The notes beneath the pieces are model-generated. The model was given only the letters and a program-made list of their open reading frames with translations. It was not told the DNA's origin and did no database searches. The translations under genes and the position numbers were made by a program. Shown piece by piece: positions 1,456 through 61,361 of a DNA stretch of 61,893 nucleotides. The DNA lies in NCBI GenBank assembly GCA_017508825.1, contig JAFWRC010000281.1:1-61893 (forward strand), read 5' to 3'. Position 1 is the stretch's first letter. Each line of letters starts with the position of its first letter. Origin of the DNA: Lachnospiraceae bacterium. Its GTDB lineage: Bacteria; Bacillota; Clostridia; Lachnospirales; Lachnospiraceae.

Positions 1456-4152
1456 ATGGCTAATAAATGGTTAAAAAAGCTTGGCTTAGGAATAGCTGCA
1501 ATTATGACAATTTCACAAGTGAGTGGGATAGTTTGTTTGGCAGCCTTCGATGATGTAGAAGCAGAAAATGTGATGGAAGTTGACGAAATCAATGAAACAA
1601 ATCGTATATCTATTGATAATGAACGAATTATCGCTATTCTATATGATGATGGGACGTTAGAGATAAGCGGAAGCGGAGTATTGGACGTGCTTAAGGAAGC
1701 GGATAACTCATCTTTTGGTGCAGACGCAAAGAAGCTTATAATAAATACCGGGATTACGGAAATAGGGGATCGTGCATTTGAAGGATATGGATTTGAAACT
1801 GTAATCCTTCCATCTTCTGTAGAGGCAATTGGAAAATACGCTTTCGGGCATTGTCTCGAATTGCAAAATGTAACCATACCGGAAGGAGTCAGATCAATTG
1901 GCATGGCAGCATTTGAAGCTTGCTTGAAATTGGAAGCAATCCGTATTCCTGCAAGTGTGACATCTATTGAAGCACCATTATTTGATTTTTGCTATAGCCT
2001 TACATCCTTAGAAGTAGATAGTAACAATAAAGTGTATGACAGCAGAAACAATTGTAATGCTATTATGAATACGAGTACCAACACTCTTATTACAGGGTGT
2101 AATACAACTGTAATTCCAGAAGATACAGTTGCAATTGGTGAAAATGCTCTCGCTTATTTAAAACTTGAATCCGTCACAATTCCGAATAAGGTAACGAAGC
2201 TTGATACAAGCGCATTTAATACAAATAATTCTTTAAAGGAGCTTTATATACCAGCGAGTGTAAAGACAATTGAAAACAAATGCTTTGATAATTGTGACAC
2301 GTTAACTGATGTATACTACGGTGGAAGTGAAACTGACTGGGAAAACATCTATATAGGTAGTAAAAATAATGTGCTTCTATTAGCAGCTATTCACTATGAG
2401 AAAACAAACGGGTCAGAAACTGTGGATATTGAGAACGGTATAACTATCGATAACGGAAGAATTACAGCTGTACTTGATGATGCTGGAACCTTAAAAATAC
2501 AGGGAACAGGAGCTTTGTGGCAATTAAAGCTAGATGATAATTCTTTTTTTGGGCAGGAAGCAACTAATCTGATTATTGAAGAGGGGATTACAGAAATAGG
2601 TGCTCATACATTTGAATATTACCCAAATCTTGAAAGCGTTATGATACCTTCATCGGTGAAGTCTATCGGAAGACAGGCGTTCGGCCATTGTTCTGAATTA
2701 AAAAAAGTAACAATATCGGAAGGAGTAGAGACAATTGGGATGGCAGCCTTTGAGACTTGCCAGAAATTGGAAAATATTAAGCTTCCTGCAAGTGTGACAT
2801 CTATTGAAGCACCATTGTTTGATTTTTGCTATAGCCTAACTTCTTTAGAAGTAGATAGTAACAATAAAGTGTATGACAGCAGAAACAATTGTAATGCTGT
2901 TATGAAGACAGATACAAATACCCTTGTTACGGGATGTGTTGGAACTACAATTCCTGAAGATACTCTTATTATTGGCAAGTATGCTATGTCATATTTAAAT
3001 ATTGAAACAATTGCTATTCCTGCTGGTATAACTCAAATTCAAGACAATGCATTTAATACTTGTAATAATCTTAAAGAAGTATATTTACCGTCCAGCCTAA
3101 TATCAATCGGAAATAAAGCATTTGCTGAATGCGCTTCACTAAAAACCATCTATATACCAAAGAATGTTAAAACACTTGATGGGTCTTGTTTTTATCACGC
3201 ATATAATCTCGCTGATATATATTACGGCGGGAACGAAGAAGAATGGAAGAAGCTGACTAATAATAGCTCGATAAATGATATTTCCCAAAATACAACAATT
3301 CACTATAATTATGTGTCTGATAAAGAAATAGAGGCGGCTGACGAGGCGGCTGCAAAATCAGTATCAGAGAAGATAGATGCAATTGGTGATATAGTAAATA
3401 ATAACGAATGTAAACAAAAAATAGATGATGCGAGAACCTCATATGAGAAGCTTACAGAAGTACAAAAAGAACTCGTATATAATGTAAATAAGCTCGTAGA
3501 AGCGGAAATGGAGTATGAACGATTAATAGCCGTTCCTCAGGAAGGAAATGCAATTGTAAAAAACGAAAATGGAAGCATGGAGTATTATCGAGATGGTGAA
3601 AAACAAAATAACTATCTTGGATTAATATGTGCAGAGAATGAATGGTATTATATTGTTGATGGTATTGTTGATGACAAAAAAAATGGATTTATTGATTATG
3701 AAGGAGGCAAATTCCTGATCGTAAACGGAAAACTGGAAACAAATTCAAATGGGCTTGTGATGGATTCAGAGAATTCAAAAGATTGGTATTTTTGTTCCAA
3801 TGGGCAGGTACAGTTGCAACATACCGGATTAGCTCAGTACGATGGGGAATGGTTCTACGTTAACAACGGAAAGCTTGACGTAACTTTGGCAGATTACGTT
3901 GAATACGATGGTGGACTGTTCTTTGTCGGGGCAGGGCGTATTATGACAGAAGTAAACGGCTTAGCTAAAGATCCGGATGGTCCAGACTGGTATTATCTTT
4001 CTAATGGACAAGCTCAAATTCAGTATACTGGACTTGCTCTGTACGATGGCGAATGGTTCTACGTTATCGCAGGTAAGCTTGCGGAAGATTACACAGGGCC
4101 GGTTGATTACGATGGGGAAACCTTCAATGTTGTCAGCGGTATGGTGAAGTAG
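1456..4152 (+). CDS. BspA-type leucine-rich repeat surface protein with cell-wall-binding repeats
   Basis: 898 residues from the ATG at 1456, which follows AAAGGAG at 1441. A signal peptide covers residues 1-27 (NKWLKKLGLG, hydrophobic core, VCLAA). Two homologous blocks follow, about residues 55-320 and 330-620. Each has BspA/LRR_5 repeats (ITEIGDRAFEGYGF, LPSSVEAIGKYAFGHC, IPASVTSIEAPLF) and ends in a YYGGSETDWENI-like cap. A charged helical segment (about 625-690, ending KLVEAEMEYERL) resembles the helical spacer found in many clostridial wall proteins. The C-terminal 200 residues carry the GLAQYDGEWFY / VEYDGGLFFVGAGR repeats. BspA repeats mediate adhesion in other bacteria; the ligand here is unknown. 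The two LRR blocks include a near-identical stretch of about 110 bp. Confidence 0.88.
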   Translation: MANKWLKKLGLGIAAIMTISQVSGIVCLAAFDDVEAENVMEVDEINETNRISIDNERIIAILYDDGTLEISGSGVLDVLKEADNSSFGADAKKLIINTGITEIGDRAFEGYGFETVILPSSVEAIGKYAFGHCLELQNVTIPEGVRSIGMAAFEACLKLEAIRIPASVTSIEAPLFDFCYSLTSLEVDSNNKVYDSRNNCNAIMNTSTNTLITGCNTTVIPEDTVAIGENALAYLKLESVTIPNKVTKLDTSAFNTNNSLKELYIPASVKTIENKCFDNCDTLTDVYYGGSETDWENIYIGSKNNVLLLAAIHYEKTNGSETVDIENGITIDNGRITAVLDDAGTLKIQGTGALWQLKLDDNSFFGQEATNLIIEEGITEIGAHTFEYYPNLESVMIPSSVKSIGRQAFGHCSELKKVTISEGVETIGMAAFETCQKLENIKLPASVTSIEAPLFDFCYSLTSLEVDSNNKVYDSRNNCNAVMKTDTNTLVTGCVGTTIPEDTLIIGKYAMSYLNIETIAIPAGITQIQDNAFNTCNNLKEVYLPSSLISIGNKAFAECASLKTIYIPKNVKTLDGSCFYHAYNLADIYYGGNEEEWKKLTNNSSINDISQNTTIHYNYVSDKEIEAADEAAAKSVSEKIDAIGDIVNNNECKQKIDDARTSYEKLTEVQKELVYNVNKLVEAEMEYERLIAVPQEGNAIVKNENGSMEYYRDGEKQNNYLGLICAENEWYYIVDGIVDDKKNGFIDYEGGKFLIVNGKLETNSNGLVMDSENSKDWYFCSNGQVQLQHTGLAQYDGEWFYVNNGKLDVTLADYVEYDGGLFFVGAGRIMTEVNGLAKDPDGPDWYYLSNGQAQIQYTGLALYDGEWFYVIAGKLAEDYTGPVDYDGETFNVVSGMVK

Positions 4153-13282: not shown

Positions 13283-13400
13283 ACACACCTTATTGGTGTG
13301 GGAAGTTTGAGTAAGTTATAATTCAGAGATGAGTTATGGGCTGGTCGAAAGACCCGGGTCCACCTTTGGCGGGTAAGACACCCGCCATTTTTATTAGGGA
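13283..13400 (+). ncRNA. Structured leader upstream of the DUF3800 gene
   Basis: Three hairpins lie between the IS and the DUF3800 gene: CACACC/GGTGTG (13284-13300), GGTC-GAAA-GACC with a GNRA loop (13343-13354), and GGCGGGT/ACCCGCC (13368-13386) followed by ATTTTTATT, which looks like a terminator or attenuator. TATAAT at 13317 could be a -10. RNA motifs upstream of DUF3800 genes have been described as a group; I cannot say whether this is one of them. Confidence 0.5.
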
Positions 13401-13405
13401 GCGAT

Positions 13406-14095
13406 ATGAAAGAGTTAAGCGTTTTTGTTGACGAAAGTGGAGATTTTGGTGAATATGAGAATCATGCACCATATTATATTATCTCACTCGTACTTCATGA
13501 TCAGAAGATGGATATTAGTGAAAATTTAAATATTCTCGAAAGAGAGATGGCGTATCTTGGTTATCCAGAGCATTGTATTCACGTTGGGCCGATTATTCGT
13601 AAGGAAAAAGAATATGAATATGAGGATCTAGAGGTGCGCCGGAAGATTGTTATGAGACTGATGGCATTTGTCAGGCATATTGATATGAAGTTTATAACGG
13701 CCTATATTGAAAAAATGCCTAATGAAGATACTGTCCAATCCGTAGCAAGACTTAGCAAGGAATTATCGTCGGGACTGAGAGACAATCTATCGTTTTTTCA
13801 ACATTTTGATGTGATTAAGGTGTACTATGATAACGGCCAATCAGAAGTGACCAAAATTATTTCATCCGTATTTAACGCTCTATTTGATCACGTTGAAGTT
13901 CGGAAAGTGATGCCGGCTCAATATAGATTGTTTCAAGTAGCTGATTTGGTTTGTACACTTGAGCTTGCGGAGTTAAAAATGAAAAAGAAGATGCTTTCGC
14001 AATCTGAAGAATTGTTTTTTGAGAATGAAAGAATTTTGAGAAAAAACTATTTAAAACCGATTAACCAAAAGTTACTCAATAAAGAAAATTACTGA
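13406..14095 (+). CDS. DUF3800 domain protein
   Basis: 229 residues; the ATG at 13406 follows TTAGGGAG. The N-terminal FVDESGDFGEY motif is the signature of DUF3800, an RNase H-like family often found in accessory and mobile regions. Further acidic residues that fit a nuclease-like site occur in VYYDNGQSE (about residue 151) and QVADLVCTLELAE (about 186). The substrate is unknown. The gene sits directly after a strong hairpin with a T tract, so expression may depend on antitermination. Its position between an IS and a tRNA array fits an accessory or defence-type role, which is inference. Confidence 0.85.
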   Translation: MKELSVFVDESGDFGEYENHAPYYIISLVLHDQKMDISENLNILEREMAYLGYPEHCIHVGPIIRKEKEYEYEDLEVRRKIVMRLMAFVRHIDMKFITAYIEKMPNEDTVQSVARLSKELSSGLRDNLSFFQHFDVIKVYYDNGQSEVTKIISSVFNALFDHVEVRKVMPAQYRLFQVADLVCTLELAELKMKKKMLSQSEELFFENERILRKNYLKPINQKLLNKENY

Positions 14096-14581: not shown

Positions 14582-14595
14582 GTTGGGAAGAATAT

Positions 14596-14669
14596 CGCTC
14601 CTTCGTCTAACCGGTCGAGGACACCGCTCTTTCAAGGCGGAAATGCCAGTTCAATTCTGGCAGGAGTGG
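14596..14669 (+). tRNA. tRNA-Glu (TTC)
   Basis: Acceptor CGCTCCT pairs with AGGAGTG. The anticodon arm is CCGCT-CTTTCAA-GGCGG, anticodon TTC; the T-arm is GCCAG-TTCAATT-CTGGC. No CCA is encoded. It is the first tRNA of the array. Confidence 0.92.
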
Positions 14670-14712
14670 TGCGGCAAAGTAAATCATTGCTGCAGAACAT
14701 TACAACATAATA

Positions 14713-14821
14713 TGGGGAGAGGCTCATAAGGAAACCGTTTCCTTATGATGAACACAGGCGCTTCAGCTACGGCATAGAGTACTTGTAAGCGGTAAAACCG
14801 CTAACAAGTACTGCTATCTCC
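14713..14821 (+). ncRNA. Structured RNA candidate between tRNA-Glu and tRNA-Gly
   Basis: A closing helix (GGGGAGA near 14713 with TCTCCCT near 14815) encloses two strong hairpins: CATAAGGAAA/TTTCCTTATG (about 14731-14753), and AGTACTTGT/ACAAGTACT with inner AGCGG/CCGCT (about 14779-14812). It resembles a tRNA in size and seven-base closing helix but has no T-loop or anticodon arm. No known family is recognised. Confidence 0.4.
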
Positions 14822-14826
14822 CTAAT

Positions 14827-14898
14827 GTCCGTGTGGTGTAACGGCAAGCATAGCTGCCTTCCAAGCAGTTGATACGGGTTCAATTCCCGTTACGGGCT
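14827..14898 (+). tRNA. tRNA-Gly (TCC)
   Basis: Acceptor GTCCGTG/TACGGGC with G-T pairs, anticodon loop CTTCCAA (TCC), T-loop TTCAATT. No CCA is encoded. Confidence 0.92.
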
Positions 14899-15030
14899 TT
14901 GAAAACAAAATAATATAACACTCTGATCGGACAGGCACACGATCGGAAAAATGTAACAGAAAACAATTGCAACAGAAAGAAGAGGAAAAGAAAAATGGAT
15001 ACTTATTATTACCTGACGAAGAATAATTAA

Positions 15031-15166
15031 CGGCAGGTAGCGTAATGCTCCAAACCCGCGAAGCGGGTGCGATAGGATTCCGAAGGAATCCCGACTGTGA
15101 ACGCACCGGTCTGTAAAACCGGTACCCGCAGGGCAAACATTGCAGGTTTAAGTCCTGCCCTGCCGA
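15031..15166 (+). tRNA. tRNA-Tyr (GTA) with a 49-nt insert in the D-loop
   Basis: The gene is 136 bp; ordinary bacterial tRNA-Tyr is about 85. Acceptor CGGCAGG/CCTGCCG, anticodon arm CCGGT-CTGTAAA-ACCGG (GTA), a long variable arm with CCC-GCA-GGG, and T-arm GCAGG-TTTAAGT-CCTGC are all intact. The extra sequence is in the D-loop. Removing 15048-15096 leaves the D-arm GCG-TAATGGTGAA-CGC with the invariant GG restored. No CCA is encoded. Whether the insert is spliced out, kept as an extra arm, or kills the gene cannot be told from sequence alone. Confidence 0.8.
15048..15096 (+). other. tRNA insert E1 (two GAA-triloop hairpins)
   Basis: The 49-nt insert in tRNA-Tyr begins CTCCAAACCC and ends ATCCCGACT. 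Hairpin A is ACCCGC-GAA-GCGGGT (15054-15068) and hairpin B is GGATTCC-GAA-GGAATCC (15075-15091), joined by GCGATA. An alternative helix GGTGCG (15066-15071) with CGCACC (15102-15107) would break hairpin A and the tRNA D and anticodon stems. It is related to E2 at 16473 and partly to the element at 57650. Confidence 0.7.
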
Positions 15167-15174
15167 CTAAACAT

Positions 15175-15246
15175 GGCTCTGTAGTGTAGAGGTAAACACG
15201 CCTGATTGTCTATCAGGTAGCACGGGTTCGAATCCCGTCAGGGTCG
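15175..15246 (+). tRNA. tRNA-Asp (GTC)
   Basis: Acceptor GGCTCTG/CAGGGTC, anticodon arm CCTGA-TTGTCTA-TCAGG (GTC), T-loop TTCGAAT, discriminator G. No CCA is encoded. Confidence 0.93.
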
Positions 15247-15311
15247 CTTGTGACGCTAACAGCAATTATTGGAGATGACTGTTAATCATAAAACCAAAGC
15301 GTCATGTATAT

Positions 15312-15384
15312 TCCCGGGTAGCTCAGTAGGTAGAGCGACGGTCTGTTAAACCGAAGGTCGCAGGTTCGAGCCCTGTCCTGGGAG
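15312..15384 (+). tRNA. tRNA-Asn (GTT)
   Basis: Acceptor TCCCGGG/CCTGGGA, D-arm GCTCAGTAGGTAGAGC, anticodon loop CTGTTAA (GTT), T-loop TTCGAGC. No CCA is encoded. Confidence 0.93.
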
Positions 15385-15388
15385 CTAA

Positions 15389-15460
15389 GCCTTAGTGGCG
15401 CAATGGCAACGCAACCGCCTTGTAAGCGGTAGGTTATCGGTTCAAGTCCGTTCTGAGGCT
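15389..15460 (+). tRNA. tRNA-Thr (TGT)
   Basis: Acceptor GCCTTAG/CTGAGGC, anticodon arm ACCGC-CTTGTAA-GCGGT (TGT), T-loop TTCAAGT. It lies 4 bp after tRNA-Asn. No CCA is encoded. Confidence 0.93.
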
Positions 15461-15461
15461 C

Positions 15462-15535
15462 TGCAGCATAGCTCAACTGGCGAGAGCGTTCGGTCCATAC
15501 CCGAAAGGTTATCGGTTCGATTCCGATTGCTGCAA
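15462..15535 (+). tRNA. tRNA-Met or tRNA-Ile2 (CAT) with C33
   Basis: Acceptor TGCAGCA/TGCTGCA (T1-A72 pair, so not a typical bacterial initiator), anticodon arm TTCGG-TCCATAC-CCGAA, T-loop TTCGATT. Position 33 reads C instead of the nearly universal T. Met and lysidine-type Ile cannot be separated here. It lies 1 bp after tRNA-Thr. Confidence 0.88.
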
Positions 15536-15602
15536 TAAAACGAAAGTGAGGAAAATGTAATGAAGCGAAAACAGAAACGAAAGTATCGAAAACCGAAATA
15601 AT

Positions 15603-15674
15603 GCGTCTGTAGCCAAGCGGAATGGCAACGGGCTTTTAACCCGTATACCACAGGTTCGAATCCTGTCAGACGCA
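15603..15674 (+). tRNA. tRNA-Lys (TTT)
   Basis: Acceptor GCGTCTG/CAGACGC, anticodon arm ACGGG-CTTTTAA-CCCGT (TTT), T-loop TTCGAAT, discriminator A. Confidence 0.93.
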
Positions 15675-15678
15675 TTAA

Positions 15679-15751
15679 GCGTCTGTGGCTCAATAGGCAG
15701 AGCAGGCGGCTCTTAACCGTCAGGTTGCAGGTTCGATGCCTGCCAGGCGCA
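15679..15751 (+). tRNA. tRNA-Lys (CTT)
   Basis: Acceptor GCGTCTG/CAGGCGC, anticodon loop CTCTTAA (CTT), T-loop TTCGATG. It shares its acceptor 5' strand with the tRNA-Lys just upstream, though the D-arms differ. Confidence 0.92.
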
Positions 15752-15764
15752 GTTTATAATTTTC

Positions 15765-15836
15765 ACAGGCGTTGGGTAATGGTAGCCCTCCTGATTTGGG
15801 ATCAGGAATGTGTCGGTTCAAGTCCGGTCGCCTGTA
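15765..15836 (+). tRNA. tRNA-Pro (TGG)
   Basis: Acceptor ACAGGCG/CGCCTGT, D-arm GGGTAATGGTAGCCC, anticodon arm CCTGA-TTTGGGA-TCAGG (TGG), T-loop TTCAAGT with wobble pairs in the T-stem. It ends 16 bp before the start codon of the DUF458 gene. Confidence 0.9.
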
Positions 15837-15852
15837 TTTGGAGGAAGAAAAG

Positions 15853-16347
15853 ATGTTTCACAGCGAGACTTATGGAAAACTGAATATAGAGCAGATACCG
15901 GAGAAGCTTCTGGCGTTCTATGAGATGAACAAGAGCTCGGAAGGAGTATTCCAGATTGTTGTTGGAACGGACAGCCAGAACTTCAATGATACCAAGATGG
16001 TGACGGTAATAGCAGCATACAAGGAAGGACACGGCGGGATCTTTTTCTATGAGATAGACCGGATCAATCGTATCACGAATGTAATGCAGAAATTAAACAC
16101 CGAAACATCGAGGTCTTTGGAAGTGATGATGCAGCTGGCGGGCGAGTTGGAAGAGGAGAGCAGATATAAGAAGATGAGAGAGAATACTTTACTATCCATA
16201 CACGTCGATGCCGGATGGTCAGATAAGGGGAAGACCAAAGAGTTGATCCCCGGGCTGGTCGGCTGGATCCGCGCATGTGGATTTGAAGCGAAATGCAAAC
16301 CTGAAAGTTTTGCCGCTTCTAGCATCGCGGACAAGATCAGCAAATAA
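15853..16347 (+). CDS. DUF458 (YkuK-type) RNase H-like nuclease
   Basis: 164 residues; the ATG at 15853 is preceded by TTTGGAGGAAG just after tRNA-Pro. The sequence matches DUF458, a predicted RNase H-like family: QIVVGTDSQNFND (first acidic site, about residue 45), RSLEVMMQLAGELEE, and IHVDAGWSDKGKTKELIPGL (second acidic site). Family members are about 160 residues, so it is full length. It has no visible promoter of its own and is probably co-transcribed with the tRNA array, ahead of the interrupted CAT tRNA at 16440. A role in tRNA or RNA-DNA hybrid processing is inference from this position. Confidence 0.85.
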   Translation: MFHSETYGKLNIEQIPEKLLAFYEMNKSSEGVFQIVVGTDSQNFNDTKMVTVIAAYKEGHGGIFFYEIDRINRITNVMQKLNTETSRSLEVMMQLAGELEEESRYKKMRENTLLSIHVDAGWSDKGKTKELIPGLVGWIRACGFEAKCKPESFAASSIADKISK

Positions 16348-16439
16348 GATTGGGTTGAGAGCAAATGTAGCCTTTGAAGCTTAAGATATAAGTAGTAAAA
16401 GAAATGAGCAGCGCACTGTGGCGACATAATCACAGACGA

Positions 16440-16559
16440 TGGAGCATAACTCAATGGTGAGAGTGGGGGCCTAACCAAACCCCGAAGGGGTGCGACAAGG
16501 ACTTCGAAGAAGTCCCGATCATATGCATCTGGTTCAGGGTTCGAATCCCTGTGCTCCAA
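16440..16559 (+). tRNA. tRNA (CAT) with a 47-nt insert in the anticodon loop
   Basis: The gene is 120 bp. Acceptor TGGAGCA/TGCTCCA is perfect, the D-arm is ACTCAATGGTGAGAGT, and the T-arm is CAGGG-TTCGAAT-CCCTG. Between D- and T-arms there are 70 bases instead of about 23. Removing 16473-16519 gives anticodon arm GGGGC-CTCATAT-GCATC (anticodon CAT, one G-A mismatch and one G-T pair) and a five-base variable loop. This placement is the only one I found that gives T33 and a seven-base loop. Met versus Ile2 is undecided. No CCA is encoded. Confidence 0.7.
16473..16519 (+). other. tRNA insert E2 (two GAA-triloop hairpins)
   Basis: The 47-nt insert begins AACCAAACCCC and ends GTCCCGAT. Hairpin A is ACCCC-GAA-GGGGT (16479-16491) and hairpin B is GGACTTC-GAA-GAAGTCC (16499-16515), joined by GCGACAA. 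As in E1, exactly six bases precede hairpin A. Both stems differ from E1 by paired changes. Confidence 0.68.
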
Positions 16560-54737: not shown

Positions 54738-55946
54738 ATGATCGAGATCAAAGGGAAAGTAAATACTGCATTATGTTATGCGACAGTTGTAGAGGAAGAG
54801 GCAATCGAGCAGGTCAGACGGATGTGTGATTATCCGTTCACAGAGGGGGCAAAGATCCGTATCATGCCGGATGTACACGCAGGCAAAGGCTGCACGATCG
54901 GTACCACCATGACCGTGGTGGACAAGGCGGTTCCGAATGTCGTTGGCGTCGATATCGGCTGCGGCATGTATACCGTAAATCTGGGCAAAGCGGATATTGA
55001 TCTGGAAAAGCTGGATGAAGCAGCGCACTATATCCCTTCCGGCATGAATGTATGGGAAGGACGACAGGAACGTTTTGACCTGACCGGTCTGCGCTGCTAC
55101 AGAGAACTGAAAGAGATGAAATGGCTCGAAAGATCCCTGGGAACCCTGGGGGGCGGCAATCATTTCATAGAAGTCGACCGCGCTGCGGACGGAACGAATT
55201 ATCTGGTGATCCATTCAGGCAGCCGTAATCTCGGCAAGCAGGTGGCGGATCTGTACCAGAATCTGGCCATCAACTTAAGCCGGGGCTACGGGGACTATCT
55301 GGAGCAGCGTGATGAGATCATCCGTACCTACAAGGAGCAGGGAAGAAGAAATGAGATCCAGGAGGCGCTGAAACAGCTGCACTGGCAGGTGTATCAGAGT
55401 GATACGCCGATCCCGGAAGATCTCTGCTACCTGTCCGGAAAATACCTGGAGAACTATCTGCATGATGTGGTGATCTGCCAGCGGTTTGCAAGAAGAAACC
55501 GGGAGAAGATGGCGGAGATCCTGCTGGAGCGTACCGGCATCAGCGGCGGTGAGGCGTTCCATACCATTCACAACTATATCGATACAGACGAGATGATCCT
55601 GCGGAAAGGCGCCATCGCGGCACATGCAGGGGAAAAAGTACTGATCCCGATCAATATGCGGGACGGAAGCGTGCTTGCGATCGGAAAAGGCAACCCGGAG
55701 TGGAACTATTCCGCGCCGCACGGAGCAGGAAGGGTCATGTCCAGATCCAAGGCAAAGAACACGCTTTCTATGGAGGAGTATAAGGAGGAAATGAAAGGGA
55801 TCTATACAACTTCTGTCAATGAGAAAACGCTGGATGAGGCTCCGATGGCATATAAGTCATTAAACGACATCATTGATGTGATCAAAGAGTCGGTAGAGGT
55901 GATTGATGTGATGAAGCCAATCTATAACTTTAAAGCATCCGACTAA
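54738..55946 (+). CDS. rtcB: RNA-splicing ligase RtcB, copy 1
   Basis: 402 residues; ATG at 54738 after AAAGGAAG. RtcB joins 2',3'-cyclic phosphate or 3'-phosphate RNA ends to 5'-OH ends using GTP and manganese. Metal and catalytic residues are present: Asp72 and Cys75 in GVDIGCGMYTV, His142 in GGGNHFIEVD, His159 in VIHSGSRNLG, His278 in TIHNYID, and the guanylylated His328 in SAPHGAGR. The length and DVHAGKGCTIG match the short bacterial RtcB. It is transcribed separately from copy 2 (about 37% identical by eye), whose own promoter lies downstream. Confidence 0.95.
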   Translation: MIEIKGKVNTALCYATVVEEEAIEQVRRMCDYPFTEGAKIRIMPDVHAGKGCTIGTTMTVVDKAVPNVVGVDIGCGMYTVNLGKADIDLEKLDEAAHYIPSGMNVWEGRQERFDLTGLRCYRELKEMKWLERSLGTLGGGNHFIEVDRAADGTNYLVIHSGSRNLGKQVADLYQNLAINLSRGYGDYLEQRDEIIRTYKEQGRRNEIQEALKQLHWQVYQSDTPIPEDLCYLSGKYLENYLHDVVICQRFARRNREKMAEILLERTGISGGEAFHTIHNYIDTDEMILRKGAIAAHAGEKVLIPINMRDGSVLAIGKGNPEWNYSAPHGAGRVMSRSKAKNTLSMEEYKEEMKGIYTTSVNEKTLDEAPMAYKSLNDIIDVIKESVEVIDVMKPIYNFKASD

Positions 55947-55979
55947 AAAAGCTTTCGCGGATGCTTCCGGCAATAAAGA

Positions 55980-56035
55980 CGTTTCTGTCAGCAGAAATTA
56001 TTTTTGTTGACAGAAACGAAAAATAAAGCTATACT
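55980..56035 (+). promoter_or_regulatory. Promoter of the rtcB2 operon with overlapping inverted repeat
   Basis: Consensus TTGACA (56007-56012), 17-bp spacer, TATACT (56030-56035). An 11-bp perfect inverted repeat (CGTTTCTGTCA at 55980 and TGACAGAAACG at 56008) covers the -35, so a repressor or activator could bind here. Confidence 0.75.
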
Positions 56036-56106
56036 GCAAAATCAGAGACATGCACGAGTCTCGTTTTCATTGTAACTATTCACCACAGCACCGAAAGGAG
56101 GACAAC

Positions 56107-56184
56107 ATGCTACAGCAAACAATACAGAACAGAATGATGCAGACAGCAGAGGCATACGTTGTCCGCGGTGTATTTTTGTGGTAG
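56107..56184 (+). CDS. Probable leader peptide of the rtcB2 operon, 25 aa
   Basis: ATG at 56107 behind a near-perfect GAAAGGAGGACAAC. The product is MLQQTIQNRMMQTAEAYVVR followed by GVFLW. It lies between the promoter at 56007 and a terminator-like hairpin at 56231, as in translation-controlled attenuators. Gln and Met are frequent; the regulatory codon is not obvious. Confidence 0.55.
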   Translation: MLQQTIQNRMMQTAEAYVVRGVFLW

Positions 56185-56230
56185 TGATCGAATAGGATTT
56201 CTCGGATAAAAGTATAACGCAGGATAACAG

Positions 56231-56271
56231 AACACCTCTGATCGTCGAACGACGAAAAGGGTGTTTTTTTC
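56231..56271 (+). terminator. Attenuator-type terminator before the Cys-rich protein and rtcB2
   Basis: AACACCT (56231-56237) pairs with GGGTGTT (56259-56265) around an inner CGTC-GAAC-GACG hairpin, followed by TTTTTC. It lies in the leader of the rtcB2 operon, after the leader peptide. Confidence 0.75.
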
Positions 56272-56297
56272 GTATGTTTTTTCAGGAGGAAGAAAAA

Positions 56298-56489
56298 ATG
56301 AAAGACAGAGTGAATCCCTGCGTACATTATGTGTGTAAAGGGGAAGACTGCAAAAAAGGATTTGTAAAGGTAGATCTGAAGAAGTGTAAAAACTGTCCGA
56401 AGTATGAGCCGCGGAAGTGTTCGAAAAAAGCGGAGTCTGTGAAAGTACGCAGACAGAAAGATAAGGACAGACACGATCGCTACGAGTAG
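56298..56489 (+). CDS. Small Cys-rich basic protein
   Basis: 63 residues from the ATG at 56298, with AGGAGG at 56283. Six Cys form pairs (NPCVHYVCKGEDCKKGF, KKCKNCPKYEPRKC) that fit a small zinc-binding fold, followed by a very basic tail (KVRRQKDKDRHDRYE) suited to RNA binding. It lies 25 bp before rtcB2 in the same transcript. A role as an RNA-binding helper of RtcB is inference. Not recognised as a named family. Confidence 0.75.
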   Translation: MKDRVNPCVHYVCKGEDCKKGFVKVDLKKCKNCPKYEPRKCSKKAESVKVRRQKDKDRHDRYE

Positions 56490-56514
56490 TTTTGATGAAA
56501 GGAAGATTTTATTT

Positions 56515-57660
56515 ATGATAACGATTTACGGAAAATATACCAACGCGCAGGTGTATACGGTGAAGAATGAGGAGTATGCACTGGAGGAACATGCGCGTGC
56601 GCAGATCCAGATGATCTGCAATCACCCGAGCGCGGCGGGCAGCAAGATCCGCGTGATGCCGGATGTGCATCCGGGGAAAGTGGCAACGGTCGGACTGACC
56701 ATGACCATCGGAAACAGCATCCTGCCGAGCCTGGTAGGCGTTGATATCGGCTGTGGTATGACACTGGCAAGAATAAAAGCAAAGGGATTGGAGTTTCAGA
56801 AGCTGGATACCGTGATCCGGGAAGAGGTACCGGTGGGGCCACAGATCCGCAAGAATACGCATAAGTATGCAGACCGTATCGATCTGGGCAGGCTGCGCTG
56901 CTATAAGCACATCAATGCAGGCAAGGCAATGCGCAGCATAGGGACCCTGGGAGGCGGTAATCATTTCATCGAGCTGGATCGGGATGAAGACGGAAATATC
57001 TATCTGATCGTGCATTCCGGCAGCCGGCATCTGGGGATGGAAGTGGCGGAATATTATCTGCACGCCGGACAGAAAGAGATGCAGATGAAAAAAGAGGGCG
57101 GCTATGCATCCTATGAAATGACCTGTATCTCCGGAGCTCTGATGGAAGACTATCTGCACGATCTGGAAGTGATGCAGGAGTTTGCAAAGATCAACCGTGA
57201 GGCAATCGTTGACAGTATCGTACGCGGAATGAAGTGGAAGACGGAAGATGCGTTTACCTGTATTCACAACTATGTGGATTTCCGTAATGCGGATGCGCCG
57301 ATCCTGCGAAAAGGTTCGATCAGCGCAATGGAAGGGGAGCGCGTGATCATCCCGATCAATATGAAAGACGGTGTGATCCTGGGCGCCGGAAGAGGTAATG
57401 AAGAATGGAACTGTTCCGCACCGCATGGCGCAGGCAGGATCTGCAAGCGGACGGATGTGGACAGCCGGCATACGGTTTCGGAGTTTAAGAAGGTTATGAA
57501 AGGTATCTACTCGACCTGTATCAACGAAGGAACGCTGGATGAAGCGCCGTTTGCCTACCGTACGCTGGAGGATATCGAAGGTGTGATCGGTGAGACGGTC
57601 ACCATCGACCGGATCATCCGCCCGGTATACAACTATAAGGCTGGAGGAAGGCGCGATTAG
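56515..57660 (+). CDS. rtcB: RNA-splicing ligase RtcB, copy 2
   Basis: 381 residues; ATG at 56515 after GAAAGGAAG. It has the same residues as copy 1: Asp77 and Cys80 in GVDIGCGMTLA, His150 in GGGNHFIELD, His167 in VHSGSRHLG, His251 in IHNYVDF, and the nucleophile His304 in SAPHGAGR. It belongs to a divergent RtcB subgroup (PDVHPGKVATVG), so the two copies are old paralogs rather than a recent duplication. The last residues (GGRRD) and the TAG stop lie inside a structured GAA-hairpin element (57650). It heads an operon with MoxR and the vWA protein. Confidence 0.93.
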   Translation: MITIYGKYTNAQVYTVKNEEYALEEHARAQIQMICNHPSAAGSKIRVMPDVHPGKVATVGLTMTIGNSILPSLVGVDIGCGMTLARIKAKGLEFQKLDTVIREEVPVGPQIRKNTHKYADRIDLGRLRCYKHINAGKAMRSIGTLGGGNHFIELDRDEDGNIYLIVHSGSRHLGMEVAEYYLHAGQKEMQMKKEGGYASYEMTCISGALMEDYLHDLEVMQEFAKINREAIVDSIVRGMKWKTEDAFTCIHNYVDFRNADAPILRKGSISAMEGERVIIPINMKDGVILGAGRGNEEWNCSAPHGAGRICKRTDVDSRHTVSEFKKVMKGIYSTCINEGTLDEAPFAYRTLEDIEGVIGETVTIDRIIRPVYNYKAGGRRD

Positions 57661-57724
57661 GACGAAGTCCTGATTATGCATCGCGCCGACCGATGTGGCA
57701 GGATTATGAAGTAATCCTGCCGAT
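57650..57724 (+). other. GAA-hairpin element E3 between rtcB2 and the MoxR gene
   Basis: GGCGCGAT (57650-57657) pairs with ATCGCGCC (57680-57687) around AGGAC-GAA-GTCCT (57659-57671) and TGATTATGC. A second hairpin, GGCAGGATTAT-GAA-GTAATCCTGCC (57697-57721), follows, then GAT. The first half matches the 3' part of insert E2 (GTCC-YGAT-TATGCATC). It contains the rtcB2 stop codon and ends just before the MoxR ribosome binding site. Confidence 0.6.
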
Positions 57725-57745
57725 ACCATGGAGGTAAATAAGTTT

Positions 57746-58822
57746 ATGAATTTAGCATTTAATGTAACACCGAATGAATTGACCGATATTTTGCTGAACA
57801 TCGCGCCGGTGCGTCCGGTCTTTATCTGGGGCGCGCCGGGCATCGGCAAATCTGCGTTGGTACAGAAGTTTGCGGATGAAGTGGGCATGGAATGTGTATC
57901 GCTTCTGGGAAGCCAGCTGGCGCCGGAAGATATCATCGGCATTCCGCGCATTGCGGACGAAACATCCGAATTTTTACCGCCGAAGATGATCGCCAAAAAA
58001 GAACCGTATGTGCTGTTTCTGGATGAGCTGAATGCGTGCTCTCAGGAAGTGCAGAAAGCTTTTTACAGTCTGATCCATGAACACCGTGTCGGCGAATACC
58101 ATCTGCCGGAGGGCAGCGTGGTGATCGGCGCGGGCAATCGTTCGCAGGACGGAGCGATCGTAAAGACCATGTCATCGGCACTGGTCAACCGTATGTTTCA
58201 TGTGCAGCTGGTGGCAAATACCAGCCAGTGGCTGGACTGGGCCTATGAGAACCATCTGCATCCCTGGGTGATCGATTATATCACGCAGCGGCCGGATCAT
58301 CTCTTTAGTGAACCACCCAAGACGGAGGAGCCGTATTCCACACCGCGCAGCTGGCATATGTTAAGCGATGCACTGAAGGAGTATCACGCAGGAGAAGAAG
58401 GCGTTGAAATCTCACATGAGATCCTTAAGGTGCTGGCTTACGGCAGTGTCAGCCCGTCACATGCGGGTATGTTTGTTGCTTACAGCCGAACGCTGCACAA
58501 CAAGGATATCTTAAGCGCGATCATCAAGGGCGATGCGCGCTGGCCGGGCAGACCGGAAGAGCGGGATGTACTGTACTTCCTGGCACAGTCCTTCCGTGCA
58601 AAACTTTTGCTGGAACTCCCTGCAAATAAGGAGAAGATGAGCAAGGACGGGCAGTTCCTTACCCACAGGGCAAAGGCGCTGATCAAGGAACTCAGCAGCA
58701 TCAATTATGAACTGGCGCAGATGGTCGTATCAGCAGACGATAACGAGGTGCTGCCGGACTGGTTTATGGTGGAGATCGTACGCGACCTGCCGAGACTGGT
58801 GAATAAAGCCAATGCAAATTAA
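57746..58822 (+). CDS. MoxR-type AAA+ ATPase
   Basis: 358 residues from the ATG at 57746; GGAGGT at 57730 gives good spacing, while the ATG at 57728 lies inside that site. Walker A FIWGAPGIGKSALVQKFA, Walker B PYVLFLDELNACSQEVQKAF, sensor 1 VVIGAGNRSQD and an Arg finger region (SSALVNRMFHVQL) mark the MoxR branch. MoxR ATPases work as chaperones together with vWA proteins, and the gene after this one encodes such a partner. Their linkage to rtcB2 suggests remodelling of an RNA-repair complex. Confidence 0.92.
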   Translation: MNLAFNVTPNELTDILLNIAPVRPVFIWGAPGIGKSALVQKFADEVGMECVSLLGSQLAPEDIIGIPRIADETSEFLPPKMIAKKEPYVLFLDELNACSQEVQKAFYSLIHEHRVGEYHLPEGSVVIGAGNRSQDGAIVKTMSSALVNRMFHVQLVANTSQWLDWAYENHLHPWVIDYITQRPDHLFSEPPKTEEPYSTPRSWHMLSDALKEYHAGEEGVEISHEILKVLAYGSVSPSHAGMFVAYSRTLHNKDILSAIIKGDARWPGRPEERDVLYFLAQSFRAKLLLELPANKEKMSKDGQFLTHRAKALIKELSSINYELAQMVVSADDNEVLPDWFMVEIVRDLPRLVNKANAN

Positions 58823-58871
58823 ACTGCGTTGACTTTGCCAACGGCGGATGCACAGACAAGGATAAAGTAAT

Positions 58872-60719
58872 ATGGGAAAGAAAACAGAACGGATCAGTCC
58901 GAATGAAGAGGCATTATTGCTTGGTTTGGAGATCATCAAACAGAGCCCGCTCTTTTCAAGGCTGTACGGAAAACCGGAGATCCGGAAAAAAGACCGGCTG
59001 GGAAAAGCGAGCGCCGTAGCGGATGCCGGTGGGTATATATGGCTGAATAAGGATATCACGCACAGTCCGGAAGAATGGGCGTTTCTGTATGCGCACTGCA
59101 AACTGCATTATGCTTTCGGGCATTTTGATGCGGATAAAGTGCCCTATCAGGAACGATTGGAAGCGGACGGAAGTTATCATCGCATATTAAATTTTGACCG
59201 TGCGCTTTGGAATCTGGCGTGCGATATCTATGTGACACGCTTTCTGGAAGAGATCAAATTCGGGAGAAATCCGGGAAGGACGGCCGCAGACACAGCGGCT
59301 CTCGGAAAAGATGAGATTGCGATCTACCGGAATCTGCAGCAGAACGGTGTACCGGAAGATCTGTATTTCGGCACCGGTGTGAAAGGCTATCCGGATATGG
59401 AGGGACTGGACAAGCCGCTGACGTATGAGAAGAACTATCGTTATAACACCCGGCCGACGGAATACTTTGCGACCGCGCTGGCCTATTCGGTATCGGCGGC
59501 GGTGAGCACGGCGGGCGGTCACAGTTTTGAAGAGAAGCAGGTTAAGACACGGGGGAAAAGAGCGGCAGAATGGTTTATCAATCATTATCCGCTTTTGGGC
59601 GGCATGGCAGCCGGTTTTAAGATCATTGAGGATGCGGATCTTTGCCACCGCGAAGAGATCTCCATCGCTGCGGTCAGTGTTACGGATATGGAGATTTATG
59701 TGAATCCGGCGGCACGGCTGGATGAGGAAGAACTGCGTTTTGTACTGGCGCATGAGTATCTGCATGTGGGACTGCAGCATTATGACCGCTGTCTCGGAAG
59801 AGACCGGTATCTGTGGAATGTGGCCTGCGATTATGTGATCAACGGCTGGCTGAAAGAGATGCAGGTGGGAAAGATGCCGTTGGACGGAATCCTGTATGAC
59901 GAAGAACTGGCGGGGCTTTCTGCGGAGGAGATCTATGACCGCATCGTTACGGATCTCAGAAAATACCGGAAAGTGCAGACGCTGCGGGGCTATGGCCGGG
60001 GAGATGTGATCGGGGATCACCGGGTGCGTCCCGGTTACCGGAATGCCATGGATCTGGATGAGTTTTGCAGAAGCGCAATGCAGCAGGGGCTGGAATACCA
60101 TCTGGGCAGCGGACGGGGGCTGATCCCCGCGGGACTGGTACAGGAGATCCGCGCGCTGGCGATGCCGCCGATCCCATGGGACGTAAAACTGGGGCAGTGG
60201 TTTGATGTGCACTTCCTGCCAATCGAACCCAAACGCACTTATGCCAGGCCGAGCCGCCGGCAGGGCAGCACACCGGATATCCCCAGACCACGGTATGTAG
60301 CGGCAGATATCCCGGAATACAGCAGGACCTTTGGCGTGGTGGTAGATACTTCGGGTTCCATGAATGCGGAAAAGATCGGTTATGCGCTTGGCGCGATCGC
60401 CAGTTATTCCGCAGCCAAAGAGGTGCCGTATGCAAGAGTGGTATTCTGTGATGCGGATGCCTATGACGCAGGTTATATTTCGCCGGAGGATATCGCGGGA
60501 CGTGTGGAGGTAAAAGGTCGCGGCGGCACGATACTGCAGCCGGGTGTGGACATGCTGGAAAAAGCAAAAGACTTACCAAAGGATGCGCCGATCCTGATCA
60601 TAACGGATGGCTATATCGAACCGGACCTGACGGTGAAGCGGGATCATGCCTACCTGCTTCCGAGAGGCGGTACGCTGCCGTTCCGGGCCAGAGGAGAAGT
60701 ATTTCATTTTGATAAGTGA
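58872..60719 (+). CDS. Metallopeptidase-like/vWA protein (DUF2201 type)
   Basis: 615 residues; ATG at 58872. Two parts: an N-terminal metallopeptidase-like domain with the zinc motif HEYLHVGLQHYDRCLG (HExxH at residues 294-298) and repeated NLACDIYVTRFLEE / NVACDYVINGWLKE text, and a C-terminal vWA-like domain with the metal-adhesion site VVVDTSGSMN (Asp492), CDADAYD and IITDGY. This is the usual partner of MoxR. Whether the zinc site is proteolytic is unknown. It lies 49 bp after the MoxR gene in the same operon. Confidence 0.9.
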   Translation: MGKKTERISPNEEALLLGLEIIKQSPLFSRLYGKPEIRKKDRLGKASAVADAGGYIWLNKDITHSPEEWAFLYAHCKLHYAFGHFDADKVPYQERLEADGSYHRILNFDRALWNLACDIYVTRFLEEIKFGRNPGRTAADTAALGKDEIAIYRNLQQNGVPEDLYFGTGVKGYPDMEGLDKPLTYEKNYRYNTRPTEYFATALAYSVSAAVSTAGGHSFEEKQVKTRGKRAAEWFINHYPLLGGMAAGFKIIEDADLCHREEISIAAVSVTDMEIYVNPAARLDEEELRFVLAHEYLHVGLQHYDRCLGRDRYLWNVACDYVINGWLKEMQVGKMPLDGILYDEELAGLSAEEIYDRIVTDLRKYRKVQTLRGYGRGDVIGDHRVRPGYRNAMDLDEFCRSAMQQGLEYHLGSGRGLIPAGLVQEIRALAMPPIPWDVKLGQWFDVHFLPIEPKRTYARPSRRQGSTPDIPRPRYVAADIPEYSRTFGVVVDTSGSMNAEKIGYALGAIASYSAAKEVPYARVVFCDADAYDAGYISPEDIAGRVEVKGRGGTILQPGVDMLEKAKDLPKDAPILIITDGYIEPDLTVKRDHAYLLPRGGTLPFRARGEVFHFDK

Positions 60720-60812
60720 TCGGTATTTATTGATGGCGGATAAATATGTGAGAAAAAATATGTTAAAAAAATATGTTAGAATAGAAAAAGTTTGAAAGAT
60801 GAGGGGAAGAAA

Positions 60813-61361
60813 ATGACAAACGAATATGTGAGTATGGGAAAATATGTATCCTATCTGTTGCGGCATCATCCAGAGGAGGCCGGCGTGGTCCTGGATGAAC
60901 ATGGCTGGACGGATGTGACGGATCTGGTTGCAAAGGTGCAGCCGAAGTATCCGCTGACGGAAGAATTGCTGCATAAGATGGCAGTAGCACCGGATAAGCA
61001 ACGGTATGAGTTCAGCGAAGACGGAAAAAGGATCCGCGCTGTCCATGGACATTCCGTTCCGGTGGATCTGGGATACGAGGAAGCAGAGCCGCCGGCAGTT
61101 TTATATCACGGCAGCGCAGAGAAGTACAGGGCCGGGATTGCGGCGGAAGGGCTGAAGAAAAAAGATCGGCTGTTCGTTCATTTATCGGAAAGAATCGATG
61201 CAGCGAAGGAAGTGGGCCGCAGACACGGAAAGCTGGTTTTGTATCAGATCGATGCACAGCAGATGTACCGGGACGGGTATAAGTTTTGTCGGTCTTCGAG
61301 CGGCGTCTGGCTGACCGATGCGGTACCGCTGAAATATATGGAAGAGATCAAAATTCTGTAA
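60813..61361 (+). CDS. kptA: RNA 2'-phosphotransferase KptA/Tpt1
   Basis: 182 residues from the ATG at 60813 (GAGGGGAAGAA upstream); an in-frame TTG at 60792 has no site. KptA/Tpt1 transfers an internal 2'-phosphate of RNA to NAD+, which in fungi completes tRNA splicing. Family motifs: YVSYLLRHHPEEAGVVLDEH, DKQRYEFSEDGKRIRAVHGH, YHGSAEKYRAGIAAEGL, RLFVHLSE and FCRSSSGVWLT. Full length. A 93-bp gap separates it from the vWA gene; no clear terminator lies between, so it may be in the rtcB2 operon. Confidence 0.94.
   Translation: MTNEYVSMGKYVSYLLRHHPEEAGVVLDEHGWTDVTDLVAKVQPKYPLTEELLHKMAVAPDKQRYEFSEDGKRIRAVHGHSVPVDLGYEEAEPPAVLYHGSAEKYRAGIAAEGLKKKDRLFVHLSERIDAAKEVGRRHGKLVLYQIDAQQMYRDGYKFCRSSSGVWLTDAVPLKYMEEIKIL

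What the first reader, a model, noticed from the sequence alone, without database searches (positions are those of the whole stretch)
15048..16519. The two tRNA inserts are homologous and show compensatory base changes
Both inserts have NNCCAA, hairpin A with a GAA loop, linker GCGAY(A)A, hairpin B with a GAA loop, and end CCCGAY. Hairpin A is ACCCGC/GCGGGT in one and ACCCC/GGGGT in the other; hairpin B is GGATTCC/GGAATCC versus GGACTTC/GAAGTCC. Bases change in pairs, which indicates selection on structure. The boundaries were inferred independently from tRNA rules, yet in both exactly six bases precede hairpin A. The inserts sit in different loops of different tRNAs, so the element has moved.
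Basis: seen in the sequence. Interest (0 to 1): 0.9.

Follow-up and report, generated by a model that had tools for sequence, protein, structure and literature searches.

The report
Mobile hairpin repeat interrupting tRNA genes
A tiny two-hairpin DNA element has spread through a group of Lachnospiraceae bacteria, landing repeatedly inside tRNA genes of apparently spare tRNA clusters and, in reading frame, inside protein genes; it looks like a selfish repeat rather than a new kind of intron, but whether the interrupted tRNAs still work is untested.

Summary
Two homologous two-hairpin inserts interrupt a tRNA-Tyr D-loop (15048-15096) and an Ile(UAU)-type anticodon loop (about 16473-16519). A covariance model built without the second insert recovers it (E 1.1e-16) and finds the element in 7 of 35 genomes of the genus. 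Of 39 full copies, 17 lie in tRNA genes (14 sites), 4 between genes of tRNA arrays, 5 in long ORFs in one reading frame, 13 elsewhere. Pairing is conserved: 99.0% of cells paired, 9 of 13 pairs with two-sided changes.

The intron reading is not supported: ORF copies stay in frame, one tRNA copy is antisense, cutting never restores Asn (G001) nor the expected anticodon of window Ile and G031 His, and 8 of 11 interrupted genes checked have intact duplicates. Best reading: a non-autonomous palindromic mobile element, working like Rickettsia palindromic elements, with an unusual taste for tRNA arrays. Unexplained: 13 of 14 sites are sense, 12 of 14 in or beside hairpin loops, and RtcB RNA ligase occurs in 7 of 7 element-bearing genomes against 11 of 28 others. 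RNA-level splicing or mobility is not excluded.

The parts
15031..15166 (+). tRNA-Tyr gene (GUA) interrupted in its D-loop
   Evidence: Acceptor CGGCAGG/CCTGCCG, anticodon arm and T arm read in the sequence; intact orthologues in G001 and G032; 35 of 36 cuts give tRNA-Tyr
15048..15096 (+). Insert 1: two-hairpin element, 49 nt; inferred empty site TAATG^GTGAAC
   Evidence: Alignment with intact tRNA-Tyr of G001/G032; R1 match 15049-15095, 73.3 bits
15054..15068 (+). Hairpin A of insert 1 (ACCCGC-GAA-GCGGGT)
   Evidence: Sequence; DNA fold
15075..15091 (+). Hairpin B of insert 1 (GGATTCC-GAA-GGAATCC)
   Evidence: Sequence; DNA fold
16440..16559 (+). tRNA-Ile(UAU)-type gene interrupted in the anticodon loop; no cut tried gives back UAU
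   Evidence: RF00005 match 44.4 bits; intact homologue L163:1419-1490 in G001; cuts
16473..16519 (+). Insert 2: two-hairpin element (boundaries uncertain by about 1-2 nt)
   Evidence: R1 match 16474-16519, 59.9 bits; alignment with intact Ile gene
16479..16491 (+). Hairpin A of insert 2 (ACCCC-GAA-GGGGT)
   Evidence: Sequence; DNA fold
16499..16515 (+). Hairpin B of insert 2 (GGACTTC-GAA-GAAGTCC)
   Evidence: Sequence; DNA fold
14595..15836 (+). tRNA array around the interrupted Tyr gene: Glu, Gly, Asp, Asn, Thr, Met, Lys, Lys, Pro (9 tRNAs found by ARAGORN)
   Evidence: related arrays in G001, G022, G032
15853..16347 (+). RNaseH_like (PF04308) gene between the array and the interrupted Ile-type gene
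   Evidence: Pfam E 4e-39; a match in 5 of 35 genomes of the genus

Best explanation
A non-autonomous palindromic mobile element of about 46-49 nt: two hairpins, mostly with GNA triloops, held by unpaired motifs CAA, GCGAYA(A) and CGA. It spreads at DNA level by an unidentified enzyme, inserting without target duplication and sometimes replacing 1-2 bases. It persists where it does least harm: in loops of redundant tRNA genes in accessory-looking arrays, in frame in proteins, inside its own linker, and between genes. Hairpin covariation reflects what the element needs to move (or to stay harmless), not intron splicing. Shown: dispersal, covariation, empty sites, in-frame copies, nesting, duplicates for 8 of 11 tRNAs checked. 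Inferred: DNA-level movement, loss of function of interrupted tRNAs, harm avoidance as the cause of where copies are found.
For: Dispersed copies: 16 matches in G000, element in 7 of 35 genomes of the genus. Empty sites in homologues: Met, Asp, Asn (G001 v. G032, the window or G001's second array), Leu-UAA (G001 v. G031), Pro (G030), Tyr (window), Arg (G032 v. G001). In-frame copies in five long ORFs, always frame PNPRSGCD; an RlmD-like gene has a nested core in G000, a different module at the same site in G022, a remnant in G018 and no recognisable element in G006, G002, G001, G032. Core-in-core nesting: at one locus G018 has the nested form (outer core cut by the contig start) and G000 the simple one, 396 of 410 flank bases identical. 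Antisense copies: Arg in G032, and between two Ser genes in G022. The four highest tRNA counts of 35 genomes, G001 (78), G022 (67), G032 and G031 (51 each), are all in element-bearing genomes; all six interrupted genes of G001 have intact copies in its second array. Anticodons altered beside the insert in Ile (window) and His (G031).
Against: 13 of 14 tRNA sites are sense (two-sided p 0.0018); 9 of 14 lie strictly in hairpin loops and 12 of 14 counting the T-arm border (one-sided p 0.03 and 0.0002, on my own count of loop positions). A DNA element landing in dispensable genes needs no such bias. 13 of 17 interrupted genes give a tRNA to ARAGORN for some cuts. No mobilising enzyme was found: Y1 transposase is in 4 of 7 element-bearing and 11 of 28 other genomes, none in G000. 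RtcB is in 7 of 7 against 11 of 28. The window's Tyr and Ile genes have no other copy in this assembly, which however also shows no Phe, Trp or His gene.
Confidence: 0.72

Rival explanations
1. A new protein-spliced tRNA intron class: the insert is cut out of the precursor and the halves are joined by RtcB, so interrupted tRNAs work.
For: Insert almost always sense and mostly in loops; cutting gives back a tRNA for 13 of 17 genes at some boundaries; RtcB in 7 of 7 element-bearing genomes; two RtcB genes and a KptA/Tpt1 2'-phosphotransferase in this window; conserved unpaired linkers could be enzyme-recognition sites; in Asp of G001 the predicted fold keeps acceptor, D and T arms.
Against: One reading frame kept in five ORFs; antisense copy and replaced bases in Asn and Arg; lost anticodons in window Ile and G031 His; intact duplicates for 8 of 11 checked; no guide pairing (permutation p 0.45); insertion at many tRNA positions; no convincing Rfam match to two copies and one long form. 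RtcB also occurs in 11 of 28 element-free genomes and the test ignores relatedness. For some sites (Arg, His, one long-arm tRNA) 4-5 of 8 shifted control cuts also gave a tRNA, so recovery there means little.
Confidence: 0.08
2. The insert is tolerated as an extra arm: the tRNA keeps both hairpins in the mature molecule and still functions, at least for D-loop insertions.
For: Loop bias; hairpins self-contained; acceptor, D and T arms preserved in the Asp prediction.
Against: Inserts in the anticodon loop (5 sites), T arm (3) and anticodon stem (1) would be expected to block decoding or elbow formation; the predicted fold lacks the canonical D arm in Tyr, the T arm in Met and the acceptor stem in Leu.
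Confidence: 0.11
3. RNA-level mobility: the hairpin RNA is ligated into cleaved tRNA or mRNA loops by RNA repair and copied back into DNA.
For: Sense bias and loop bias, no target duplication and 1-2 base replacements; RtcB co-occurrence.
Against: No link to a reverse transcriptase was tested; antisense copies exist; self-nesting and intergenic copies do not need it.
Confidence: 0.06

Closest known systems
Rickettsia palindromic elements (RPE) and Wolbachia palindromic elements
   Same: Dispersed palindromic repeats found in existing ORFs without destroying the frame (PMC3767692, passages read)
   Different: Different bacteria; no sequence comparison was made. The core here is 46-49 nt against 100-150 bp; frequent use of tRNA genes as sites; two-hairpin core with conserved linkers
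REP/BIME repeats and IS200/IS605-derived MITEs (features recalled)
   Same: Short hairpins, no target duplication
   Different: No shared flanking tetranucleotide at the sites read; Y1 transposase does not co-occur; found within genes
Archaeal/eukaryotic protein-spliced tRNA introns and group I introns in bacterial tRNAs (features recalled)
   Same: Interrupt tRNA genes; one site (Asp) is at 37/38
   Different: No fixed position, no Rfam intron match in the copies tested, also in ORFs in frame and once antisense; far smaller than a group I intron
tRNA array units (PMC5966550, abstract start seen in listing)
   Same: The host loci are dense clusters of tRNA genes
   Different: Here they act as insertion targets

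Membership tests
Rickettsia palindromic element-like repeat | Dispersed, palindromic, multiple copies per genome | tested here: met
   16 matches in G000, 13 in G018
Rickettsia palindromic element-like repeat | Inserted into existing ORFs in frame | tested here: met
   5 long ORFs; RlmD-like orthologues without the element
Rickettsia palindromic element-like repeat | Sequence homology to RPE/WPE families | not tested
   No RPE sequence was compared; I claim likeness in habit, not membership
MITE of a DDE transposon | Terminal inverted repeats and target-site duplication | tested here: not met
   Met, Asp and Pro sites show no duplication; ends TACC...CGAC are not inverted repeats
REP/IS200-IS605-derived element | Co-occurring Y1 transposase | tested here: not met
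   4 of 7 against 11 of 28, p 0.43; none in G000, an incomplete assembly
Self-splicing intron (group I/II) or known ribozyme | Match to the family model | tested here: not met
   Two copies with flanks: besides tRNA only chance-level matches, E 1.7, 5.5 and 9.7, the last overlapping a copy on the other strand; long form: none up to E 10
Protein-spliced tRNA intron | Precise excision yields functional tRNA | tested here: inconclusive
   13 of 17 genes give a tRNA to ARAGORN at some cuts; 4 never do; window Ile never with UAU, G031 His never with GUG
Protein-spliced tRNA intron | Spliced RNA product | not testable with these tools
   No RNA data

The most novel reading that the evidence does not exclude
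The two-hairpin RNA itself is mobile: RNA repair of the RtcB type ligates it into cleaved loops of tRNAs (and of other transcripts, sense only), the chimera is copied back into DNA, and the same machinery can cut it out again, so that some interrupted tRNAs are working intron-bearing genes in a bacterium.
Probability: 0.08. Interest if true: 0.93.

Novelty: new variant of a known kind. Interest (0 to 1): 0.62.

Why it matters
In-frame palindromic repeats in genes are known to me mainly from Rickettsia and Wolbachia. Here an element in Lachnospiraceae does the same and also repeatedly enters tRNA genes, at 14 different sites, nearly always sense and mostly in or beside loops. That makes testable whether tRNA arrays are neutral landing pads or whether RNA structure guides insertion or tolerance. 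It also warns annotators: ARAGORN called none of the 17 interrupted genes with the insert in place, while the Rfam tRNA model still found several of them.

Tried and rejected
Guide pairing between the 5' flank and the element's 3' end looked good in Asp, Pro and Glu but over 15 entries (14 sites, Ile entered twice) is no better than permuted flanks, p 0.45. Y1 (HUH) transposase as partner: no co-occurrence. Known RNA family: nothing convincing. Phage or plasmid origin: the long form has no blastn match in 50,697 phage and 72,556 plasmid records, and no viral contig holds the strict core pattern. A search for a short anticodon pattern was too loose to use. An automatic reading of the long form's closing helix failed for most of 12 copies; that helix is read by eye. 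Literature: ten searches of the held library listed no paper whose title or abstract start describes this element, and its peptide is in none; I read passages of one paper only (PMC3767692); subscription papers are not held.

Selection of copies: two G018 loci (L058, L062), whose 110 bases on each side are identical to those of L057 and L061, were left out of the 39-copy alignment, as were partial modules and matches weaker than E 1e-12. The Ile genes of four genomes were counted as one site. Of the 13 copies counted as elsewhere, two (L018, L060) lie in open frame at or just before the start of a long ORF.

I also wrote that replaced bases always prevent recovery; Arg of G032 is still recognised in 33 of 36 cuts. 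I lowered the best explanation from 0.74 to 0.72 for this.

Full report
WHAT IS THERE. The window carries a tRNA array with nine tRNAs found by ARAGORN. Within it lies a tRNA-Tyr gene split in the D-loop by a 49-nt insert (15048-15096), and after an RNaseH_like gene a second split tRNA (16440-16559; Rfam tRNA 44.4 bits despite the insert). The second tRNA is an Ile(UAU)-type gene: an intact homologue lies at L163:1419-1490 in genome G001.

HOMOLOGY AND COVARIATION. A DNA search of the window's own genome with the Tyr gene gave nine further matches, all to the insert part. Model R1, from five copies without the Ile insert, recovers the Ile insert at E 1.1e-16 and gives 16 matches in G000, some partial. 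In a search of 98 genomes (own included) 9 match at E 0.001 or better, 7 of them in the genus of 35; the other two (G077, G097) are weak and look like chance. A strict pattern scan of a collection of 84,980 species genomes gave 12 stretches in 7 assemblies, all titled Lachnospiraceae bacterium MAGs, three with Rumen in the contig name; records very near the window's own may be left out there. On 39 full copies (33 distinct) 99.0% of cells pair, 9 of 13 pairs change on both sides, and the score is 0.418 against 0.158 in shuffles and at most 0.145 in slid controls. The count of further pair types does not exceed shuffles (202 of 500). The alignment was fitted to the model's structure, which favours it somewhat. 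Unpaired positions average 1.64 bits against 1.43 for paired ones; CAA, GCGA-A and CGA are invariant; triloops are GNA in 31 of 33 for hairpin B and 19 of 33 for hairpin A, with ANA in 10 more. GNA triloops are very stable in single-stranded DNA (recalled), a hint, not proof, of a DNA intermediate.

WHERE THE COPIES ARE. My tally of the 39 copies, from contexts: 17 in tRNA genes; 4 in arrays between genes (L051:3211, two in L053, one in L104); 5 in long ORFs; 13 elsewhere. The 17 represent 14 sites, counting the Ile gene of four genomes once: D-loop 4 (Tyr, Leu-CAA, Gln, Ser), anticodon loop 5 (Ile, Asp, Glu, His, one tRNA with a long variable arm), T arm at 52-54 3 (Met, Pro, Leu-UAA), anticodon stem 1 (Asn), variable loop 1 (Arg, antisense). 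None is in an acceptor stem. Thirteen are sense and one antisense. In G001 all 6 matches lie within 2.9 kb of a 4.2-Mb genome. The chance figures treat sites as independent and use my own count of loop junctions (26 of 72). G018, with 13 matches, has none in a tRNA gene.

EMPTY SITES. Homologous arrays give filled and empty sites. Met and Asp of G001 match intact copies in G032, the window or G001's other array, so the insert reads TACC...CGAC with no duplication of the target. Pro of G030 shows the same. Asn of G001 equals Asn of G032 around the site except that GT is replaced by the insert plus AA; Arg of G032 has TA replaced. Insertion is therefore sometimes imprecise. With the insert cut out, 13 of 17 interrupted genes give ARAGORN a tRNA at some of 36 boundary pairs; Asn_G001, IleX_G030, Pro_G030 and Glu_G030 never do. 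Shifted control cuts gave a tRNA in 0-2 of 8 for 14 genes but in 4 of 8 for the long-arm tRNA and 5 of 8 for Arg and His. Pro and Ile of G030 are also damaged by a second, different palindromic repeat; why Glu of G030 fails I did not establish. In the window's Ile gene 0 of 27 recognised cuts give UAU and in His of G031 0 of 34 give GUG; in Ile of G001 2 of 28 give UAU and in Asp of G001 5 of 32 give GUC.

PROTEIN GENES. Five long ORFs carry the element in the same frame (VPNPRSGCDKEFEEFP and variants), among them a methyltransferase with TRAM domain that I call RlmD-like, an HD-domain protein and a YidC-like protein with a weak sulfatase match; two have no Pfam match. At the RlmD-like site G000 carries a nested core, G022 the element's tail module, G018 a remnant, and G006, G002, G001 and G032 no recognisable element. 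If the element were spliced from RNA there would be no reason to keep this frame. The long form has head and tail hairpins and a closing helix around the core that reads GCGCC/GGCGC, GTCGC/GCGAC or GTCCC/GGGAC (by eye; the script's own pairing failed for most). Cores also insert into the linker of other cores (locus comparison).

ACCESSORY-LOOKING ARRAYS. G001, G022, G032 and G031 have the highest tRNA counts of 35 genomes. G001 has two arrays; the fetched part of the second holds no element match and intact versions of all six interrupted isoacceptors. In G000 Leu-CAA has an intact copy (L113), and in G032 Arg-TCT. For the window's Tyr and Ile no second copy was found among the 42 tRNA matches of G000, but the assembly is 89.7% complete and shows no Phe, Trp or His gene either; for Ile of G032 none was found in the 20 stretches fetched outside the array, which are not all. 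Duplicates for the remaining sites (Ser, the long-arm tRNA, His, Glu, Pro) were not looked for. The RNaseH_like gene is in 4 of 7 element-bearing and 1 of 28 other genomes.

WIDER RELATIVES. Model R2 over 397 family genomes hits 7 at E 1e-4, one being G000. G356 (another genus) has three copies with quite different helices, two of them keeping CAA, GCGATAA and CCGAC; two are at ORF ends, one between genes. G320 has one between tRNA-Asn and tRNA-Cys. The other four are single and doubtful. So the motif may be older than the genus, and the tRNA habit is not universal.

RESULTS THAT DISTURB THE BEST READING. RtcB RNA ligase is in 7 of 7 element-bearing genomes and 11 of 28 others (Fisher p 0.0076; not corrected for relatedness, genome size or the three families tested). 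This window itself holds two RtcB genes, a MoxR-type AAA, a metallopeptidase/vWA protein and a KptA/Tpt1 RNA 2'-phosphotransferase at 54.7-61.4 kb, which looks like an RNA-repair cluster. A bacterial RtcB operon regulated by damaged tRNAs is described in PMC7790460 (title and abstract start seen in listing). With the sense and loop bias this keeps RNA-level splicing or mobility alive at low probability. The mobilising enzyme remains unknown.

VERDICT. A real, structurally constrained, mobile palindromic element; works like Rickettsia palindromic elements, with tRNA arrays as a favoured site; not shown to be an intron. New variant of a known kind.

Noticed in passing
window 54738-61361: RNA-repair-like cluster: two RtcB genes, MoxR AAA, DUF2201 metallopeptidase/vWA, KptA/Tpt1, with a GA-cis RNA (57642-57731) between the second RtcB and MoxR whose hairpins also carry GAA loops.
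   Followed up: partly
L050 (G030:C125), about 2290-2370 and 3103-3160: A second, different palindromic repeat (ending GACCGGAGCGAAGCGGAGAC) sits in the T-loop of the interrupted Ile gene and at a Tyr/Pro gene fusion; a related copy lies near the element in L105.
   Followed up: no
window 14710-14820: The spacer between tRNA-Glu and tRNA-Gly holds two long inverted repeats inside a GGGGAGA...TCTCCC stem; the shorter spacer at the same place in L104 lacks them.
   Followed up: no
window 14995-15030: A tiny ORF MDTYYYLTKNN with three Tyr codons ends directly before the interrupted tRNA-Tyr; L104 has a small ORF in its array that contains the element in frame.
   Followed up: no
L163 and L049 (G001): One genome carries two large tRNA arrays beside its other tRNAs (78-80 tRNA matches).
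   Followed up: partly
window 13337-14095: DUF3800 gene preceded by a DUF3800-XI RNA (Rfam RF02975), upstream of the array.
   Followed up: no
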